Assembly (NCBI GenBank): GCA_016868455.1
Contig: VGGV01000002.1
Location: forward strand, 62,001-126,000
Reading direction: 5' to 3'
DNA length: 64,000 nt
Source: Bacteroidota bacterium
Lineage (GTDB): Bacteria; Bacteroidota; Bacteroidia; Chitinophagales; Chitinophagaceae
Within the stretch, counting starts at the first letter, position 1, and each line of letters opens with the position of its first letter. Below, one piece after another: positions 21,648 to 50,275 of this stretch. The notes under the pieces were generated by a model, which was given only the letters and a program-made list of their open reading frames with translations, ran no database searches and was not told where the DNA came from. A program made the position numbers and the translations under genes.

Positions 21648-22522
21648 TCATCCCTTGTCCTTTTCTTTTGCTTTGTATAGTATTCCCAGAATTTCTTTGA
21701 TGGTGCCTGGGTCTTTGTTTAGCTCCAGCGAACGTTCCAGGAAGCTGATTGCTTTTTTGTAATTGCCATTCTCATAATATCCTTCGCCAAGGCTGGAAGC
21801 AGTGTTGGATGACTCGGGATATAAAGTATAATTCATCCGGAAGATTTGCAGCGCTTCTTTTTTCTTGCCCTGTTTCACCAGCAGATAGCCAAGACTGTTG
21901 AGTTCATGTTCTCCGGCTACCAACGTTCTCAGTTGCTCAGCAAGTCCCCTGGAGCTGTTGTTATCATCACCTAAGCTGCCGTCATTCAGCCAGCGCAGCA
22001 CCGTGCTGAAAGACCGGTAATTGGGTGAATAAGATTGGCCACAGAGAATGGCGAGCAAATCTTTTTCCAATGAGTTAACCGGAAATTCGTTGATCCGGGT
22101 TATTTCAACCCCTTTTTTATAAACGATGAAAACAGGTACCCGAAAAACACCCAGTCCGTCTTCTTCATGTTGCGGACTTTGCTTGTAAAGAGAATCGGTG
22201 CCGCCCAGGGCAATTAGCTGTGGTTTGTATTCAGGAAAGGAAATGGCAGAAAGCGAGGTACTTCCCTTTTACTGTCGCCGCACCAGCTGCCAAAGAAAAT
22301 TTTAATACTGATGTTATCAAAATTTTGCTTTTTAAGAGCAGTCACTACAGTTGTGTTTGGGTTATAGGATTTATAACCGCTGTCAAACCATTTTACAAAC
22401 GGTTTGATGTAAAGACTGTCTTTTGTACAGGAGCCGTATAGTATCCTGTCCTTTTCGGCAGTGGTTTGCGCCATGACAGAACATGAAAATGCTATAAAGA
22501 GCAATATGATTCTGAATTTCAT
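21648..22522 (-). pseudogene. Secreted thioredoxin-like protein with TPR tail, frameshifted
   Basis: The 5' part (from 22522) has a signal peptide (to CSVMAQ) and a thioredoxin-like segment with FFGSWCGDSKREVPRF, then leaves frame at about 22215-22260 and stops. The next frame continues the same domain (FPEYKPQLIALGGTDSLYK, GVFRVPVFIVYKKG) and then a TPR region (ALQIFRMNYTLYPESS) to 21648. One net 1-nt loss explains it. The active-site motif is CGDS, not CxxC, so it may never have been a disulfide oxidoreductase. It is related in its first domain to the gene at 44992-45522. Confidence 0.75.
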
Positions 22523-23035: not shown

Positions 23036-24510
23036 ATGGTTGGTTACAGAGAAGTATATTCGTTTACCGAATATCCGGGTATGCTGATTTACAGTCCCCT
23101 AATCACACCAAGGCTTAATTATGTGGCAGATTTTTCCGGCAAGGAACTTACGGGGCGGCCTGCTGCGGTTACCAGTAATGCCGGTGATTTTTTAGCTTAT
23201 GATGGTGTAAAAATTAATTACAGTCATCAGCGGATTGCTGATAGTGAGCTTTGGATCTGCCCGCATCATTTGTTATTTGAAACAGGCATAAAAGAACAGC
23301 CTGTTGATTGTTTTGAATGGCATGGGACAAAAGCTTTTTTTAAAACAGAAGGAGATGTTGAGTTTGATATCTTCGCAGCTTCTTTTTACCTGCTCAGCCG
23401 GTATGAAGAATACCTGGTGTATAAAAAAGATATGTATGGCCGGTACGCTCATGAGAACTCACTTGCCTTTAAGGAAAACTTTCTTAACATTCCTCTTGTA
23501 AACATCTGGCTGCAGCAATTTAGAATTATGTTGCAAACCCAATTTCCCGGCCTGCCTGCCGGACAGGCAGGTTCTCAATTTCGCATTCCCCAATTCACCT
23601 TTCTGCCTACTTATGATATTGATGAAGCCTTTTGCTACAAATACAAAAGCTGGTGGCGAACTTGGGGCGGCTGTTTGCGGTCTGTTTTCAAAAGACAATG
23701 GTGGGAAGTAAAAGAAAGAAGTAATGTATTAAAAGACCGTATGAATGATCCTTATGATTCTTTTGAATGGATAAAAGAACTGCATTATCTCCGCCGTTAT
23801 CTGGACGCATTTTTTTTATACTGGTGGCAGAAAAAACCGGTCGTTATGATAAAAATAACTCACCGCACAATAAAGAACTGAAGAAGATATTTCAGGATTT
23901 TTTCAGCAAAGAGCCTGATTAGATACGACCCGGTGTGGAGAAACCTTTTTTCTGGCCCGGTCTTCATTCTTCATGGCAAAGCGGCGACAAACCCCAGCTT
24001 TTGAAAAAAGAACAGGCCTTATTATGTGAACTTACAGATGCCGGGTTCAGGAATTGCTCACGGCAGCATTTCATCCGCTTCACCCTTCCGCAAACTTTCA
24101 GGCAACTGATTGAGGCGGGCATAAGCGACGATTATTCCATGGGCTATGGCAGTATCAATGGTTTCCGGGCCTCGGTAGCGTCATCATTTTACTGGTATGA
24201 TCTTGCAGCAGAAACAACAACTTCACTCAAATTGCATCCGTTCTGTTACATGGATGCCAATTCCTTTTATGAACAAAATCAAACACCTGAAAAGGCTTTC
24301 GGGGAAATGCTGCACTACTTCAATATTATCAAATCAGTAAACGGAAGTATGATCACCATCTGGCATAATACATTTCTGGGAACACACAGAAGGTTTGCCG
24401 GGTGGCAGGAGGTATATAAAAAATTTATACACCACATTTACTATGAAATACCTTGTGTAAACGCTCAAATTGATAATGAAGGAATGGATAAAAGGCATTT
24501 CCCCCATTAA
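23036..24510 (+). pseudogene. Polysaccharide deacetylase-like protein, frameshifted and with a TAG
   Basis: The first part (about 280 codons) has features of the Bacteroidota deacetylase-like proteins that begin MLIYSP (TYDIDEAF, PYDSFEWI). The frame breaks after the T8 tract at 23810-23817: a 2-nt surplus (TA) separates FF from LVAEKTGRYDKN. The new frame meets TAG at 23920-23922 and then reads on, in frame, through HSSWQSGD, DYSMGYG and IWHNTFLG to 24510. NodB-type motifs H-x-S-W and D-I-D-E are seen, so the ancestral enzyme acted on a cell-surface or capsular glycan. True start may be 23036 or 23081. A palindrome sits inside at 23551-23571. Confidence 0.75.
23551..23571. repeat. CCTGCCTG palindrome inside the deacetylase-like gene
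   Basis: CCTGCCTG (23551-23558) and CAGGCAGG (23564-23571) flank CCGGA. In the protein frame it encodes PAGQAG in a stretch not needed by the fold. The same arms form a perfect 20-bp palindrome at 47370-47389. Confidence 0.75.
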
Positions 24511-25517
24511 ACCCCTTCCGTTTCCGGCTGCTCAGGCGCAGGCACGGCCTTGAATGCTTTGTTTACAAGGTACACACCGAGCAGCGTAACAATTCCTCCT
24601 ATGGTAATAAAAAGAGTTACTTTTTCTCCAAACACTATCCATCCGCAAAGCACTGCCACTATCGGGTTAATATAAGCATATACGGAGGCCTGTTCGGTAG
24701 GCAGATTTTGCAATGCATACAGGTAGCAAATAAAGGCAAGCAAAGATCCGAAGATGATGAGATAGGCAATGGCGGCCCATGATTGCCAGGGTATCTTACT
24801 GACTGATACAGCGGTTCCGTTTATGTTTGTAAACATGGTAAGGCAAATTCCTGAAATCATCATTTGTAAACCCAGGCTGAAGTAGGGATTAAAATTAACA
24901 GCCTGTTGCTTGGTATAAAGGGTGGCAAAGGCCCAAGTCCAGGTAGCGATCAGCGACAATATGATTCCAAGACGAAAGCTGGCATTGAAAAAATCATCAA
25001 GGTGATCAGAAAAAATTATACATACTCCCGAAAATCCAAGTAATAAACCCATAATAGCCCTTGATGGGATTTTTTCGCTTGAAGCAAATAATCCTATCAC
25101 CACAAGCCATAGCGGAAAGATGGCGCCAATGATAGAGCCCAGGCCGGCAGAAATGTATTTCACCCCCCAGGTACTAAGCCCGTTACTCATAATAAAATTC
25201 AGGAAACTGAGCACCAGCACGGGTATCCATTCTTTGCCTTTTGGAAAAGCTGCACCTTTATAGAGAAAAAACCCAACATACAAAGTACCGGCCATTAATT
25301 GCCGGATACCTGCAAGCTGCAAAGCGGGCATGTGCCTCACACCTTCTTTGGAAGCAATCCAGGTGGTGCCCCAGAAAAAACAAACCAATGCCAGTGCAAA
25401 CCAGGCCTTGGCCCTTGTTCCTTTCTTACGAATGGTCAACGGGTTAAAGGCCGATAGTTTTTTCAGGTAATCAGCAGGGGCGTTGAGCATTGTTTTATGA
25501 AAATCAAAGATGTTCAT
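24507..25517 (-). CDS. EamA/DMT family transporter
   Basis: A 336-residue protein with ten hydrophobic helices in two EamA repeats; FFWGTTWIASKEG opens the first, and the C-terminal helix ends near YLVNKAF. These transporters export amino acids or small metabolites across the inner membrane; the substrate is unknown. Its ATG (25517) shares a base with the TGA of purH (TGATG), so translation is coupled. The first 35 residues before helix 1 are longer than usual, and a later start such as 25488 is possible. Confidence 0.88.
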   Translation of the reverse strand: MNIFDFHKTMLNAPADYLKKLSAFNPLTIRKKGTRAKAWFALALVCFFWGTTWIASKEGVRHMPALQLAGIRQLMAGTLYVGFFLYKGAAFPKGKEWIPVLVLSFLNFIMSNGLSTWGVKYISAGLGSIIGAIFPLWLVVIGLFASSEKIPSRAIMGLLLGFSGVCIIFSDHLDDFFNASFRLGIILSLIATWTWAFATLYTKQQAVNFNPYFSLGLQMMISGICLTMFTNINGTAVSVSKIPWQSWAAIAYLIIFGSLLAFICYLYALQNLPTEQASVYAYINPIVAVLCGWIVFGEKVTLFITIGGIVTLLGVYLVNKAFKAVPAPEQPETEGV

Positions 25518-27055
25518 CAGTGCTTAAAATGCCGCATGCCCGTCATCACCATTGCCAGGTTGTGTTGTTTGCAATAATCAATGGAGTCATTATCCCTTAT
25601 TGAACCGCCTGGCTGAATGAAAGCCGTAATACCGGCTTCATGCCCCATTTTTACACAATCATTAAAAGGAAAGAAAGCATCGCTGGCCATAACGGCCCCT
25701 TTCAGGTCAAAATTAAACTGCTTTGCTTTTTCGATAGCTTGCCTTAACGAATCAATGCGGCTGGTTTGCCCGCAGCCTTTGCCGATAAGTTGTTTGTTTT
25801 TTACCAGCACAATGGCATTGGATTTTAGATGTTTGCAGATGAGATTTGCGAAAATCATATCTTCTTTTTCAGCATCCGTAGAATTTCTGCCACCCGCTTC
25901 TCTCCATTCAGTATAGCTGCCTTCATCCATACCTTGTACCAGTACTCCATTAAGTATGGATTTGTATTGTTCGTTCACCCGGGGATGTGATTTTAGCTGC
26001 AACAAAATACGGTTCTTCTTCAATTTCAATAAAGCCAGTGCATCCTCATCAAACGCCGGGGCAATCAGCACTTCAAAAAAGATTTCATTGATGGCGCCGG
26101 CTGTTGCGTTGTCGATAGTACCGTTACAAACCAATACTCCTCCAAATGCACTTTCCGGATCACCCGCCAGCGCAGCACACCAGCTTTCTTTAACAGTCTC
26201 CCGCTGTGCTATGCCACAAACATTGGTATGTTTGATAATGCCAAATATGGTGCTGGTAAATTCATTGATGATTTGTACCGCAGCGTCAACATCCACCAGG
26301 TTATTGTAGCTAAGCTCTTTTCCGCTAAGCTGGTCAAAAACCGGGTTCAGATCGCCATAAAACACGGCGGTCTGATGAGGGTTCTCCCCGTACCGAAGCG
26401 GCTTCGGATCGGTAACTGATTCCAGGAAATACAGGGAATCAGAGGGGTTAAAATATTTTGCGATTACCACATCATAATGGGCCACCACTTCAAAGGCTTT
26501 TGCCGCAAAAGCCTTCCGTTGTTCCAGCGATGTTTCTCCATTTTGTTCCTTCAGCAGGGTTTCCAGTTCAGGGTAATCTTTTTTAGCTGCAATAACTACC
26601 ACATCCCGAAAGTTCTTGGCAGCGCCCCGTATCATCGAGGGCCCGCCGATATCAATTTTTTCGACAATAGTGGCCTCCCCCTGACCCCCTCCGGAGGAGG
26701 GGGAAGAAGAAACAGCCGCAACTGTTTCCTCAAACGGATATAAGTCAACTATTACTAAATCTATCTCTGGAATCTTGTATTGCTTCATCTCAGCCATATG
26801 AGTTTCATCATCTCTTTTTCCGAGAATGCCGCCGAATACAGACGGATGTAATGTTTTTACCCTTCCGCCAAGAATGGATGGATATGAAGTAAGATTTTCT
26901 ACCGGGGTAACTTTTATTCCGAGGCCTTCCATAAAACTTTGGGTACCCCCGGTGGAGTAAATGGTCACCCCCAGCCGGGAAAGCTCCTGTACAATAGTTT
27001 CCAGTCCCTCTTTGTAAAAAACAGAAATAAGCGCAGATTGAATCTTTTTGTTCAT
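25517..27055 (-). CDS. purH: Bifunctional AICAR transformylase/IMP cyclohydrolase PurH
   Basis: A 512-residue enzyme for the last two steps of IMP synthesis. The N-terminal cyclohydrolase domain (about 1-150) has STGGTQ, GGRVKTLHP and KIDIGGPSMIRGAAKN. The C-terminal transformylase has RYGENPHQ, KHTNVCG and SDAFFPF. Between VDLYPFEETVA and IVEKIDIGG it carries an extra Ser/Gly segment of about a dozen residues (116-128, SSSPSSGGGQGEA). This is the translation of a palindromic DNA repeat (26675-26708). PurH normally has a short loop here. Otherwise the protein is complete. Confidence 0.97.
   Translation of the reverse strand: MNKKIQSALISVFYKEGLETIVQELSRLGVTIYSTGGTQSFMEGLGIKVTPVENLTSYPSILGGRVKTLHPSVFGGILGKRDDETHMAEMKQYKIPEIDLVIVDLYPFEETVAAVSSSPSSGGGQGEATIVEKIDIGGPSMIRGAAKNFRDVVVIAAKKDYPELETLLKEQNGETSLEQRKAFAAKAFEVVAHYDVVIAKYFNPSDSLYFLESVTDPKPLRYGENPHQTAVFYGDLNPVFDQLSGKELSYNNLVDVDAAVQIINEFTSTIFGIIKHTNVCGIAQRETVKESWCAALAGDPESAFGGVLVCNGTIDNATAGAINEIFFEVLIAPAFDEDALALLKLKKNRILLQLKSHPRVNEQYKSILNGVLVQGMDEGSYTEWREAGGRNSTDAEKEDMIFANLICKHLKSNAIVLVKNKQLIGKGCGQTSRIDSLRQAIEKAKQFNFDLKGAVMASDAFFPFNDCVKMGHEAGITAFIQPGGSIRDNDSIDYCKQHNLAMVMTGMRHFKH
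26675..26708. repeat. C-run/G-run palindromic element inserted in frame in purH
   Basis: Two C-runs (CTCCCCC and CCCCC) are followed by the perfect palindrome CCTCCGGAGG (26688-26697) and a G5 run. On the coding strand it reads SSPSSGGGQG, extending a surface loop of PurH with no frame change. Confidence 0.75.
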
Positions 27056-27185: not shown

Positions 27186-27377
27186 CTAAATACTCATTTT
27201 GTTGCTTTCCGCTACAAGTGCTGTAACAAATTTTTCTAATGACTGTTGGGATAAATTTTTTATAGAAAATTCCAGTTTGTTATTCTTGCCATAGATTTTT
27301 ATATAATTAACCTTTGAAAACAGAAAAATTATTAACGAAATGAAAGAAAAAGATAGGGCAAGCCAAAATAGAATCAT
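27186..27377 (-). CDS. Downstream half of a two-frame small membrane protein gene
   Basis: A 63-residue reading from ATG 27377: one transmembrane segment (MILFWLALSFSFISLIIFLF) followed by strands and a helix (VNYIKIYGKNNKLEFSIKN, SLEKFVTALVAES). The frame is open further upstream, back to a TGA near 27450. It reads continuously into the upstream ORF if the ribosome slips -1 at 27404-27410. On its own it would be half of a PH-like fold, so I think it is the second half of one gene of about 170 codons, not a separate protein. Function unknown. Confidence 0.5.
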   Translation of the reverse strand: MILFWLALSFSFISLIIFLFSKVNYIKIYGKNNKLEFSIKNLSQQSLEKFVTALVAESNKMSI

Positions 27378-27397
27378 TATTGATTGAAATTCTTTAT

Positions 27398-27697
27398 CTA
27401 TCTCTTTTTTAAAGAAATAACTTCGTCTAATCCGTAGCTGTTCCTGTATAGAAATTCATTATTTTCTTCATTCTTAAAATAAGCCCACACACCAATCGCT
27501 ACGCTTATTAATAACAAGAAAATAAATAGCACCTTATAGTACTGTACCCTTTTCCGGATTATTTCATAAGAAATAAAATCTTTAAGTAATAATTCGCTGT
27601 GTTTATTTTTCGACTTATGTAAAACACGGTGCGTTGTAAGAACAACAGAGTTGTCATTTGAGATTAATATTGCTTCCTCTTTTTGGGAATGGGTCAT
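27398..27697 (-). CDS. Upstream half of a two-frame small membrane protein gene, PH-like
   Basis: A 99-residue ORF. The first 45 residues (AILISNDNSVVLTTHRVLHK, KDFISYEIIRKR) look like the first strands of a bacterial PH-like domain. One transmembrane helix follows (VLFIFLLLISVAIGVWAYF). It ends LKKR-stop at 27398. Two codons before the stop is the heptamer A AAA AAG in phase. A -1 slip there continues as EIDKEFQSI into the second membrane segment of the next ORF. The block (27.1-27.7 kb) is visibly more AT-rich than purH and comEC around it. Confidence 0.6.
   Translation of the reverse strand: MTHSQKEEAILISNDNSVVLTTHRVLHKSKNKHSELLLKDFISYEIIRKRVQYYKVLFIFLLLISVAIGVWAYFKNEENNEFLYRNSYGLDEVISLKKR
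27404..27410 (-). other. Slippery heptamer A AAA AAG, possible -1 frameshift site
   Basis: On the minus strand the zero frame reads TTA AAA AAG AGA TAG. The heptamer A AAA AAG is the dnaX-type slippery sequence in the correct phase, two codons before the stop. A -1 slip gives AAA AAA GAG ATA GAT and joins the next ORF. A lost base in an A7 run would look the same. Confidence 0.45.
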
Positions 27698-27744: not shown

Positions 27745-29856
27745 TTAATTAATTTTCATCACAAAAGCACCTTTCATACTAACATCATGCCAGGGGATTT
27801 TTAGTGAATCACAGTCTTTTTTCCAGTAATTTACTTTCCATGCAGGGGCAGAGCCGTCAAAAACAACCTGTTTGATATCCAGGGCTGTTACCAGGTTTTT
27901 GAAATATAATCTGGGGTTTTTGGATATTATAAGCAGATCAATTGTTTGTTTTGTAAACGAGGTGTCAAATGAAATGGATTCACCGGCAAGCATGATATGT
28001 TTGCCTTTATAGGCAATGAATTTTCCTTCCTGCTGAAATCCCTGCACATTGTAAACCCGGCTGAGGCGAAGCAAAATCCGTGAAGGTTTAAGATGAAAAT
28101 TGCGGGCAAAACCTTCAAACAGGACATCGCTGTCGCCAACGAACTGAAATTTTCTTCCGCTGATAAAATCTATAGCGGTTTTCTGCGGAACATTATAGAC
28201 GATGATTTTTTGTTGCTGATTGCTTTTGATGAATGAGGCTGTCCGGAAAATTGTGAAGAGAAACAGGGAGGCAAGCCCCCAATAAAGGCCCTGTTTTTGT
28301 TTTTCCATCAGCCAATAGCTGATGCCTGCGGTGAAAACAATTAAGAGAACAACTTGTGAAATACTTATCTGAAGCCCGTCCCACAGCGAGCCTGGAATCA
28401 GTTCTACCTGTTCTACATAGGTATTCATAACCCAAATTAGCCAGAACAGCGCTTTGCCAAGCAGCATGGCCGCTGCGGGAATAAAGGATATGCAGCATAG
28501 CAGGATTTCTCCTAACAAAATAATGCTGGATAAGGGTACCGCAAGAAAATTAGTAAGGAAAAACAGCAGAGGAAACTGGTGGAAATGATAAATGCTAAGA
28601 GGAATAGTAAGTATTTGGGCGGCCAGCGTTACCGCATTCAGTTTCCAGATAAAGTCCAGCGCCTTGTTTTTTATATAAAACCAGTTGTAAATAGGCCGCA
28701 TGAAAATAATGATGCTGAGAACTGCCGCATAGGATAACTGGAAGCCTACATCCCAGAGCCCGTACGGGTTAATACACAAAAGGAGGAAAGCCGAAACAGC
28801 CATTGTATTATAAATGGAAGTTTTCCGGCTGAAGGTTTCGCCCAGAACAATAAAGGAAAACATAAATGCGGAACGAAGTACGGAAGGTTGCGCCCCCGCA
28901 AGCAGACTAAAGCCCCAAAGACCAGTAATGATCAGCAGGGGCCGGAGCCATTTTGTTTTTTTGTTCCTGGTCAGCGGTTTCAACAGCAAAGCCAGCAGCC
29001 AGTAAATAAGACCCAGGTGCAGGCCTGATATAGCGATAATATGCACAACGCCGGTGTTGGTATAAGATTGGACCAGGGATTGATCCAGATCATCTTTGTA
29101 GCCTATCAGCAGGGCTTCGGCCAGCCCCAGTTCTTTTGGCCCGGGAATATTTTTCCTGAGTATGTTCAATACCTTTTGCCGGGTGGAGTAAATAACCTGC
29201 TTAGCGGGGTTTACAGTTCTGCCAGGAATAATTTCATATTCATCCCTTTTCAGGAACACCTGGTAAGTGATGCCGCGGAATAAAGAATACCGTTTATAGT
29301 CAAACCCTCCGGGGTTGCCGGAGTTTTTTATTTCCTGCAGCGGGTTTTTAAAAATGATTTTTGAGCCATAAGACAACTGCAGCGGCAGCGAATCAGTTTG
29401 AGAAGCGCTGTCTTTCCGGAAATAAAGTATCAGGCGGCATCTTACAGGTATTTGTAATCCATCTCGTATAACATACTGCACATTTGCGTCAGCCTTAAAT
29501 GACTTTGTTTTTTCTACCGGAGGTTCATCCAAAACAGCAATAATTGCTTCACCATTTTTATAGGTGTGCCCAAGCCAGTCTTTATCCTTTCTTACATCCT
29601 TGTTCCATGCCAATATACCTCCTGCAGCTGCAAAAATTATTGCAATGGCCAATCCTGTGAAAAATGCAAACTTAAACCGACTGAAAAAAGGGAGAAAAAG
29701 GAACCCTGTTAAACAAACCAGACCTGTTAACAGCAATATCAGCCATATGTAAAGAACAGGCTGAAGATGCAATTGTAAAATAATACCCGCAGCAAATGCC
29801 AGCAGCAGCTTTACAAACGGGGCTTTTTTCCAGAAATGGGCCGTGTACAGAGCCAT
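27745..29856 (-). CDS. comEC: ComEC/Rec2 family DNA uptake channel
   Basis: A 703-residue inner membrane protein. It has N-terminal membrane helices, a DUF4131-type OB-like segment (about 110-200), the ComEC competence core (NTGVVHIIAISGLHLGLIYWLL near residue 275, then about eight helices to 520), and a short C-terminal domain. The C-terminal part is shorter than the full metallo-beta-lactamase domain of B. subtilis ComEC and lacks a clear HxHxDH motif, as in many Bacteroidota. It carries single-stranded DNA into the cytosol during transformation. comF and radA at 1-3 kb would act in the same process. Confidence 0.92.
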   Translation of the reverse strand: MALYTAHFWKKAPFVKLLLAFAAGIILQLHLQPVLYIWLILLLTGLVCLTGFLFLPFFSRFKFAFFTGLAIAIIFAAAGGILAWNKDVRKDKDWLGHTYKNGEAIIAVLDEPPVEKTKSFKADANVQYVIRDGLQIPVRCRLILYFRKDSASQTDSLPLQLSYGSKIIFKNPLQEIKNSGNPGGFDYKRYSLFRGITYQVFLKRDEYEIIPGRTVNPAKQVIYSTRQKVLNILRKNIPGPKELGLAEALLIGYKDDLDQSLVQSYTNTGVVHIIAISGLHLGLIYWLLALLLKPLTRNKKTKWLRPLLIITGLWGFSLLAGAQPSVLRSAFMFSFIVLGETFSRKTSIYNTMAVSAFLLLCINPYGLWDVGFQLSYAAVLSIIIFMRPIYNWFYIKNKALDFIWKLNAVTLAAQILTIPLSIYHFHQFPLLFFLTNFLAVPLSSIILLGEILLCCISFIPAAAMLLGKALFWLIWVMNTYVEQVELIPGSLWDGLQISISQVVLLIVFTAGISYWLMEKQKQGLYWGLASLFLFTIFRTASFIKSNQQQKIIVYNVPQKTAIDFISGRKFQFVGDSDVLFEGFARNFHLKPSRILLRLSRVYNVQGFQQEGKFIAYKGKHIMLAGESISFDTSFTKQTIDLLIISKNPRLYFKNLVTALDIKQVVFDGSAPAWKVNYWKKDCDSLKIPWHDVSMKGAFVMKIN

Positions 29857-33362: not shown

Positions 33363-33923
33363 TCAGTTGGAAGGAAAGATCTGTTGCGGTTTGGGAATCT
33401 TGCGGTATTTCAGGGAATACTGATCATCATATATATTCCGTTGCCGGGCCAGCATGTCGGTTACCAGGTTTTTAAACTCTTGTGAACTGGCAAAATACTT
33501 CCGGGTGGAGAAGCTTTCGGTAATGATTCTTACATCCAGGGTGTCATTTTTTCTGTCGAAGGCTGCTGCATAAAATACTTTTTGTTTTTTAAGCAATGGT
33601 TTTTCCGGGTCCCTTCATCAATGATTACAGAACCCTCCACATTCATAAACTGCTGGGTGCCGATCCAGGAAGTGTATCCGGTAAAATAGGCAGTATCCGG
33701 CATAACCATATCGCCTTTTATGGCTTTTCCATAGCGGATAATTGAATAAACGGAATCGGACTGGCGGGATATTTCCAGCGCTTCAATGCCAAAGTAGTCG
33801 CTGCCGTCTTTAATAATGCCGTACCAGTAACCCATCAGGCTCCATAGGCACCGTTGACTCAAACGGGCAGGCCGATAATATAGTGCACAGGGGCAGTAGC
33901 CACCACCATTTTATTTTATCCAT
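33363..33923 (-). pseudogene. Lipoprotein of unknown function with two compensating frameshifts
   Basis: Starting at ATG 33923 there is a lipoprotein signal (MDKIKWWWLLPLCTILSAC) and a short linker. At about 33835-33860 the frame changes to one that reads GYWYGIIKDGSDYFGIEALEI and so on. At about 33595-33610 it returns to the first frame and reads FYAAAFDRKNDTLDVRII to 33363. The pieces join into one plausible beta-rich lipoprotein of about 185 residues. Family not recognised. The two shifts are opposite in sign, consistent with two single-base errors or mutations. Confidence 0.65.
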
Positions 33924-35853: not shown

Positions 35854-36325
35854 ATGGCAATAACGCTTAAAGAAGGGGACAAAGCTCCTGCTTTCACCAG
35901 CAAGGACCAGGACGGTAAAAAAGTTTCTTTAGCTGATTATAAAGGAAAGAAACTGATTTGTATTTCTATTCAGAAGCCGGTTCTCCCACCTGTACAATTG
36001 AATCATGCAACCTGAGAGATAATTATGACCTGCTGATGAAAATGGTTTTGAAGTTTTAGGAGTAAGCCCGGATACCCAGGTCAAACAAAAGAAATTTGAG
36101 ACCAAATACAGGCTGCCTTTCAGGCTAATTGCTGATAATGAGAATAAAATAACGGACCTGTACGGTGTACATGAGATGAAAAAACTTTTCGGTCGTGAAT
36201 ACATGGGTATTCTCCGTACTACTTTCGTTCTTGATGAAAGAGGATTCATCCGAAGAATATTTCTTAAACCAAAGAATAAAGCCCATGCAGAGGAAATTCT
36301 TGCGGGCTATGCAGGTTTGCCGTAA
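35854..36325 (+). pseudogene. Thioredoxin-dependent peroxiredoxin (Bcp/AhpC-TSA), frameshifted
   Basis: The start (MAITLKEGDKAPAF) and the remainder of a 1-Cys/2-Cys Bcp peroxiredoxin are present, but in three frames. A base is missing in a T run near 35960 (LILYFY is broken) and one in an A run near 36042 (the codons before NGFEVLGVSPD). The catalytic part reads SPTCTIESCNLRD in the middle frame. The last frame runs KKFETKYRLPFRLIADNEN to TAA at 36323. It would detoxify peroxides if intact. Both changes are single-base losses in homopolymers, which could be sequencing errors. Confidence 0.75.
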
Positions 36326-50046: not shown

Positions 50047-50178
50047 TCATGAACAGGATTCATCCTCGTCTTCATCCTTATTAGGGGCCATTTTACGGGT
50101 TTCCCTCACCACTTTTACCGCCAGGATGGCGACACCGGCCAAAAGGGCCGTACAAACCCCGAAAACTGCATAAGCCAT
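50047..50178 (-). CDS. Small single-span membrane protein, 43 residues
   Basis: In the 233-bp gap between alaS and the GNAT gene, the minus strand encodes a 43-residue protein. A hydrophobic segment (AVFGVCTALLAGVAILAV) is followed by Lys/Arg residues and an acidic tail (DEDEDES). Signature and composition are like a real one-helix membrane protein. It is too short to judge by family, and no clear promoter was found. Confidence 0.5.
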   Translation of the reverse strand: MAYAVFGVCTALLAGVAILAVKVVRETRKMAPNKDEDEDESCS

Positions 50179-50275
50179 AAGCCTGTTTCTAAACAGAATA
50201 ATGGATCAAAAATCTGCTTTTATATTTACCGGCCAATACCACTTTGTGGTAAGTAAAACTACCCATCGCCTGCTC

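What the first reader, a model, noticed from the sequence alone, without database searches (positions are those of the whole stretch)
27186..27697. Possible programmed -1 frameshift joining two small membrane ORFs
The upstream ORF ends TTA AAA AAG AGA TAG. The heptamer A AAA AAG is in the phase of the dnaX slippery site, and a -1 slip continues as EIDKEFQSI into the second ORF with no stop between. The first ORF carries the first part of a PH-like domain plus a membrane helix; the second carries a helix and the last strands. Together they make one plausible protein of about 170 residues. A simple 1-base loss in an A7 run would give the same DNA, so real frameshifting is only one of two explanations. 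The slip would yield both short and long products.
Basis: partly seen in the sequence, partly recalled or inferred. Interest (0 to 1): 0.65.

Follow-up and report, generated by a model that had tools for sequence, protein, structure and literature searches.

The report
Broken frame, not programmed frameshifting
Two short reading frames are the halves of one small membrane protein whose gene is broken by an apparent one-base loss in a run of A, most likely a sequence error or an ordinary mutation and not a regulated frameshift.

Summary
The two frames and the A AAA AAG heptamer (27404-27410, minus strand) are really there, and the halves belong to one protein. Twelve homologous genes in 12 other genomes of the order are all one open frame; the nearest is 37% identical over the full length. 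None of the seven aligned homologs has A AAA AAG at the break. Two have another in-phase slippery pattern, G GGA AAA, at or near it, but without a frame change. The site lacks a stimulating stem and a Shine-Dalgarno-like stimulator. The heptamer in phase is common: 69 of 508 sampled genes. The genome has other frame breaks: 7 in 5 of 217 genes tested against a relative, 0 of 204 in reverse. One is a double break in a thiol peroxidase of this window. This fits a sequence or assembly error, or a recent indel. Programmed -1 frameshifting is not strictly excluded, because no close ortholog was found, but little supports it. The protein is small, uncharacterised, PH-like at best, in a low-GC slot between comEC-like and purH-like genes.

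The parts
27398..27697 (-). ORF1: N-terminal part (LTTHR motif, first membrane helix, start of the loop); 99 aa
   Evidence: aligns to the N part of single-frame homologs
27404..27410 (-). A AAA AAG heptamer (six A then G), place of the frame change, in the loop between the two membrane helices
   Evidence: no A AAA AAG at the aligned place in the seven aligned homologs
27186..27410 (-). ORF2 in the -1 frame: second membrane helix and C-terminal part; its own first ATG is at 27377 (63 aa)
   Evidence: aligns to the C part of single-frame homologs
27745..29856 (-). upstream neighbour, ComEC-like competence protein (name recalled from its sequence, no family search run), intact frame
25517..27055 (-). 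downstream neighbour, PurH-like protein (name recalled from its sequence, no family search run), intact frame

Best explanation
A single ancestral gene for a small two-helix membrane protein of about 170 residues appears split in this one genome by the loss of one base in a run of A. Most likely this is a sequencing or assembly error (about 60%); a real recent indel that inactivates or truncates an accessory gene is the second choice (about 33%). The heptamer and its phase are by-products of the loss. Shown: the two halves match one protein, the homologs are whole, and the genome has other frame breaks. Inferred: that the loss is in the data and not in the cell. The confidence below is for 'broken frame, by error or indel'.
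For: Twelve homologous genes in 12 other genomes are single open frames of 143-223 codons stop to stop, with no stop inside the match: G025, G009, G001, G116, G283, G294, G398, G206, G494, G521, G525, G561. G294 is 37% identical over the whole length without a gap in the loop. The genome has more frame breaks: G037 proteins against 648 kb of G000 gave 7 frame changes in 5 of 217 genes over 222 kb aligned; G000 proteins against 1.2 Mb of G037 gave 0 in 204 genes over 216 kb. The p-value is 0.016 on sites (binomial) and 0.06 on genes (Fisher), both two-sided. In this window they include a thiol peroxidase broken twice (35854-36313) and a gene at 33.4-33.9 kb. A DUF7033 protein at 23.0-23.9 kb ends early here: 27 matches in 26 relatives align only up to query residue 251-263 of 281 and lie in frames of 373-471 codons. 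Five of the 7 measured changes have the net direction of a one-base loss, as here. GeneTack (PMC3711429, passages read) expects singleton frame breaks confirmed by BLASTp to be sequencing errors rather than genuine indels.
Against: At least three of the other breaks (two in the peroxidase, one in an ATPase gene) do not lie in runs longer than four, by eye, so one common error type is not shown. The difference in genes is only borderline (p = 0.06). 212 of 217 tested genes are intact, so the assembly is mostly good. One of the 7 changes rests on a short match (23 residues). Two homologs have a G GGA AAA pattern at or near the break. No reads were available.
Confidence: 0.92

Rival explanations
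1. A real, recent one-base deletion: the gene is a fresh pseudogene, or a slippable A run toggling between strains (phase variation). This is the second half of the best explanation, scored apart.
For: The gene is accessory: 29% GC against 44% for the window, patchy in relatives and absent from the comEC-purH slot of G037, where another gene sits. Both halves still align to homologs, so a loss would be recent.
Against: Other genes nearby, a thiol peroxidase with two breaks among them, are broken too, which fits errors better than selective loss. Six A is a short run for phase variation (general knowledge).
Confidence: 0.33
2. Programmed -1 ribosomal frameshifting at A AAA AAG giving a short and a long product, in the manner of dnaX or IS elements, evolved only in this lineage.
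For: Heptamer in the right phase with an open -1 frame. The only lysine tRNA found has anticodon UUU (30 of 36 tRNA loci read). A T TTA AAA overlaps it. Two homologs have G GGA AAA in phase at or near the aligned break, though in whole frames.
Against: 12 of 12 homologs are single-frame. No downstream structure beyond chance (z = +0.75). No Shine-Dalgarno-like pairing upstream beyond chance: 6690 of 8781 in-gene 20-mers pair as well or better. The heptamer is common in phase in this genome, 69 of 508 genes. The short product would lack the C-terminal part.
Confidence: 0.04
3. Two separately translated genes (coupled reinitiation at ATG 27377) whose products assemble into one split protein.
For: ORF2 has an ATG about 20 bases after the stop of ORF1.
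Against: None of the 12 homologs is split. The -1 frame is open back to the heptamer, so the ATG need not be a start.
Confidence: 0.03

Closest known systems
Singleton frame-transition genes of the GeneTack survey (PMC3711429, passages read)
   Same: One genome with a frame change, homologs whole, no conserved split
   Different: GeneTack used complete genomes; this is a 64-contig assembly
dnaX -1 frameshift signal
   Same: A AAA AAG heptamer in the same phase (dnaX motif as given in PMC3711429, passages read)
   Different: Here no conserved split, no stem-loop beyond chance, no Shine-Dalgarno-like stimulator beyond chance
Homologous single-frame membrane proteins of Chitinophagaceae (e.g. in JAEUVJ010000008.1, MAG-378)
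   Same: 37% identity over full length, two hydrophobic helices between N and C parts
   Different: Their frame is whole

Membership tests
Programmed -1 frameshift (dnaX / IS type) | slippery heptamer in phase, with the -1 frame open | tested here: met
   but A AAA AAG is in phase in 69 of 508 sampled genes
Programmed -1 frameshift (dnaX / IS type) | site and split conserved in homologs | tested here: not met
   12 of 12 homologs single-frame; no A AAA AAG at the break in the seven aligned; L011 and L002 have G GGA AAA at or near it, frames whole; homologs are distant
Programmed -1 frameshift (dnaX / IS type) | downstream stimulatory structure | tested here: not met
   z = +0.75, 155 of 200 shuffles fold at least as well; one 93-base stretch tested, no pseudoknots
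Programmed -1 frameshift (dnaX / IS type) | upstream Shine-Dalgarno-like stimulator | tested here: not met
   -1.0 kcal/mol with a recalled anti-SD tail; 6690 of 8781 in-gene 20-mers as good or better
Programmed -1 frameshift (dnaX / IS type) | both products made in the cell | not testable with these tools
   needs mass spectrometry or ribosome profiling
Transcriptional slippage gene | A or T run of about nine (PMC1088944, passages read) | tested here: not met
   run of six A
Singleton frame break (error or indel) | homologs whole, break in one genome only | tested here: met
PH-domain proteins | significant match to a PH family profile | tested here: inconclusive
   no hit over a cut-off; best Vps36_ESCRT-II E 3.4e-4 in homolog L014, 21.2 bits against a cut-off of 24.1

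The most novel reading that the evidence does not exclude
A lineage-specific programmed -1 frameshift in a cellular membrane protein that yields a one-helix short form and a two-helix long form.
Probability: 0.04. Interest if true: 0.5.

Novelty: not a real feature. Interest (0 to 1): 0.07.

Why it matters
It shows that a textbook-looking slippery heptamer at a frame break is weak evidence: such heptamers are common in phase in this genome, and losing one A from a longer run creates one automatically. For annotation, the two ORFs should be recorded as one broken gene, and this stretch of the assembly treated with care.

Tried and rejected
Programmed frameshifting, transcriptional slippage and two coupled genes were each considered and rejected as above. 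Pfam and NCBIfam scans of the halves gave nothing over a cut-off, and Pfam scans of six homologs did not name the family either. A profile search of solved structures found nothing credible (best E 2.5). No structure was predicted: the homologs came from the genome search, which is not among the sources that tool names. The genome-contig scan with ORF1 found no relative; the scan with the G294 protein returned one locus, its own record, which gave a name. Promoter-like sites were 3 against 3.8 expected by chance, and no terminator was found; no Rfam match at the gathering threshold. One paper search on indel errors listed one paper, which I did not open; another listed four, of which I saw passages of two. 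G016 (E 0.008, inside a 674-codon frame) was dropped as not a homolog. The first heptamer listing covers 10 of the 12 homologs, because L140 and L142 missed my motif filter; placing heptamers against the break was done for the seven homologs in alignment A2, not for the five. The thioredoxin-like ORF at 22.2-22.5 kb also looks cut short, but I did not confirm it with a relative.

Full report
Observation. On the minus strand, ORF1 (27697-27398, 99 aa) ends TTA AAA AAG AGA TAG, and the -1 frame is open from the heptamer at 27410-27404 to 27186. The description is accurate, except that the strand was not named.

One protein. ORF1 alone found G025 and G009 (97 genomes searched); ORF2 alone found no other genome at E 0.001 (97 genomes). 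Profiles containing the read-through found homologs in 12 other genomes: 3 in the genus (42 genomes searched), 4 more in the family (394 genomes) and 5 more in the order (396 genomes); these sets overlap and include the window's own genome. All 12 are one open frame of 143-223 codons stop to stop, without a stop inside the match. In the eight-sequence alignment the identities to the window protein are 22-37%; the nearest, in G294, covers the whole length without a gap in the loop between the helices. G294 is the same record as a Chitinophagaceae MAG (JAEUVJ010000008.1). The window gene is thus a single ancestral gene with its frame broken in the loop.

Heptamers in the homologs. In-phase X XXY YYZ patterns come and go in the family. 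A AAA AAG occurs in L003 and L008, 73 and 54 columns from the break, in whole frames. Near the break, L011 has T TTG GGA and G GGA AAA 2 and 1 columns before it; L002 has G GGA AAA 9 columns after it in alignment A2 and at it in A1; L012 has T TTT TTG 8 columns before it. A -1 slip there would give only 7-34 further codons. G GGA AAA in phase is found in 72 of 508 sampled genes of this genome, so I read these as chance; they are the part of the comparison that does not fit 'no heptamer at the site'. L013, the nearest homolog, has none.

Signals of recoding. The 93 bases that begin in the stop region fold no better than shuffles (z = +0.75). The 20 bases upstream pair with a recalled anti-Shine-Dalgarno tail at -1.0 kcal/mol, as well as or worse than 6690 of 8781 in-gene 20-mers. 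No Rfam family matches the locus. A AAA AAG in phase occurs in 69 of 508 sampled genes. The only lysine tRNA seen has anticodon UUU (30 of 36 tRNA loci read), which by general knowledge would permit slippage. [quoted passage not shown]

Genome background. Proteins of the relative G037 (940 ORFs from 1.2 Mb) were compared with 648 kb of this genome: of 217 genes with a best match of at least 50% identity, 5 show 7 frame changes. In reverse, 204 genes of this genome against G037 show none. For sites the two-sided binomial p is 0.016; for genes Fisher's p is 0.06. An earlier run on a smaller sample, at 40% identity, gave 3 changes in 2 of 70 genes. The broken genes include a thiol peroxidase with two breaks (window 35854-36313; the relative's copy passes the NCBIfam cut-off) and a gene at window 33.4-33.9 kb with two frame changes, one of them on a 23-residue match; outside the window, a HerA/CedD-like ATPase and an OmpA-like and a TPR-like protein, named from NCBIfam matches under their cut-offs. 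A DUF7033 protein at window 23.0-23.9 kb matches 26 relatives (27 matches, as G010 has two) only up to residue 251-263 of its 281, while their frames run to 373-471 codons; 6 of those 27 matches hold one or two stops, which I did not look into. Five of the 7 measured changes have the net direction of a one-base loss, as in the finding. At least three do not lie in runs longer than four, so the error type is not settled.

Reading. GeneTack (PMC3711429, passages read) requires a cluster with a conserved frameshift site for a programmed frameshift, and expects homology-confirmed singletons to be sequencing errors. This case looks like such a singleton. I put error at about 60%, real indel about 33%, programmed frameshifting about 4%, two coupled genes about 3%; these are judgements, not computed.

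Function. The gene is small, 29% GC against 44% for the window, and sits between a comEC-like and a purH-like gene, where G037 carries a different gene, a peptidase by my reading of its sequence. It is patchy in its order. It has two hydrophobic helices between an N part with an LTTHR motif and a C part, which would suit a PH-like fold interrupted by a membrane hairpin; only a sub-threshold Vps36 match in one homolog (and a weaker one in another) backs this. A membrane-anchored lipid or protein binding role is a guess.

Noticed in passing
window 35854-36313: Thioredoxin-dependent thiol peroxidase (NCBIfam match of the relative's copy) broken twice; intact in G037
   Followed up: yes
window 33363-33911: Conserved small protein with frame changes on the minus strand; intact in G037
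   Followed up: partly
window 23036-24510: DUF7033 protein that ends early near a run of T; relatives have longer single frames
   Followed up: partly
window 22214-22522: Thioredoxin-like ORF (by eye; no Pfam hit) that looks cut short by a frame change; not confirmed with a relative
   Followed up: no
L088 (G000:C4, contig positions about 50150-50260): HerA/CedD-like ATPase with a frame change and a changed residue in what looks like its Walker A motif, which again hints at errors or decay in this assembly
   Followed up: no
L011 and L002, loop between the two helices: G GGA AAA in phase at or near the place aligned with the window's break, in whole frames
   Followed up: partly
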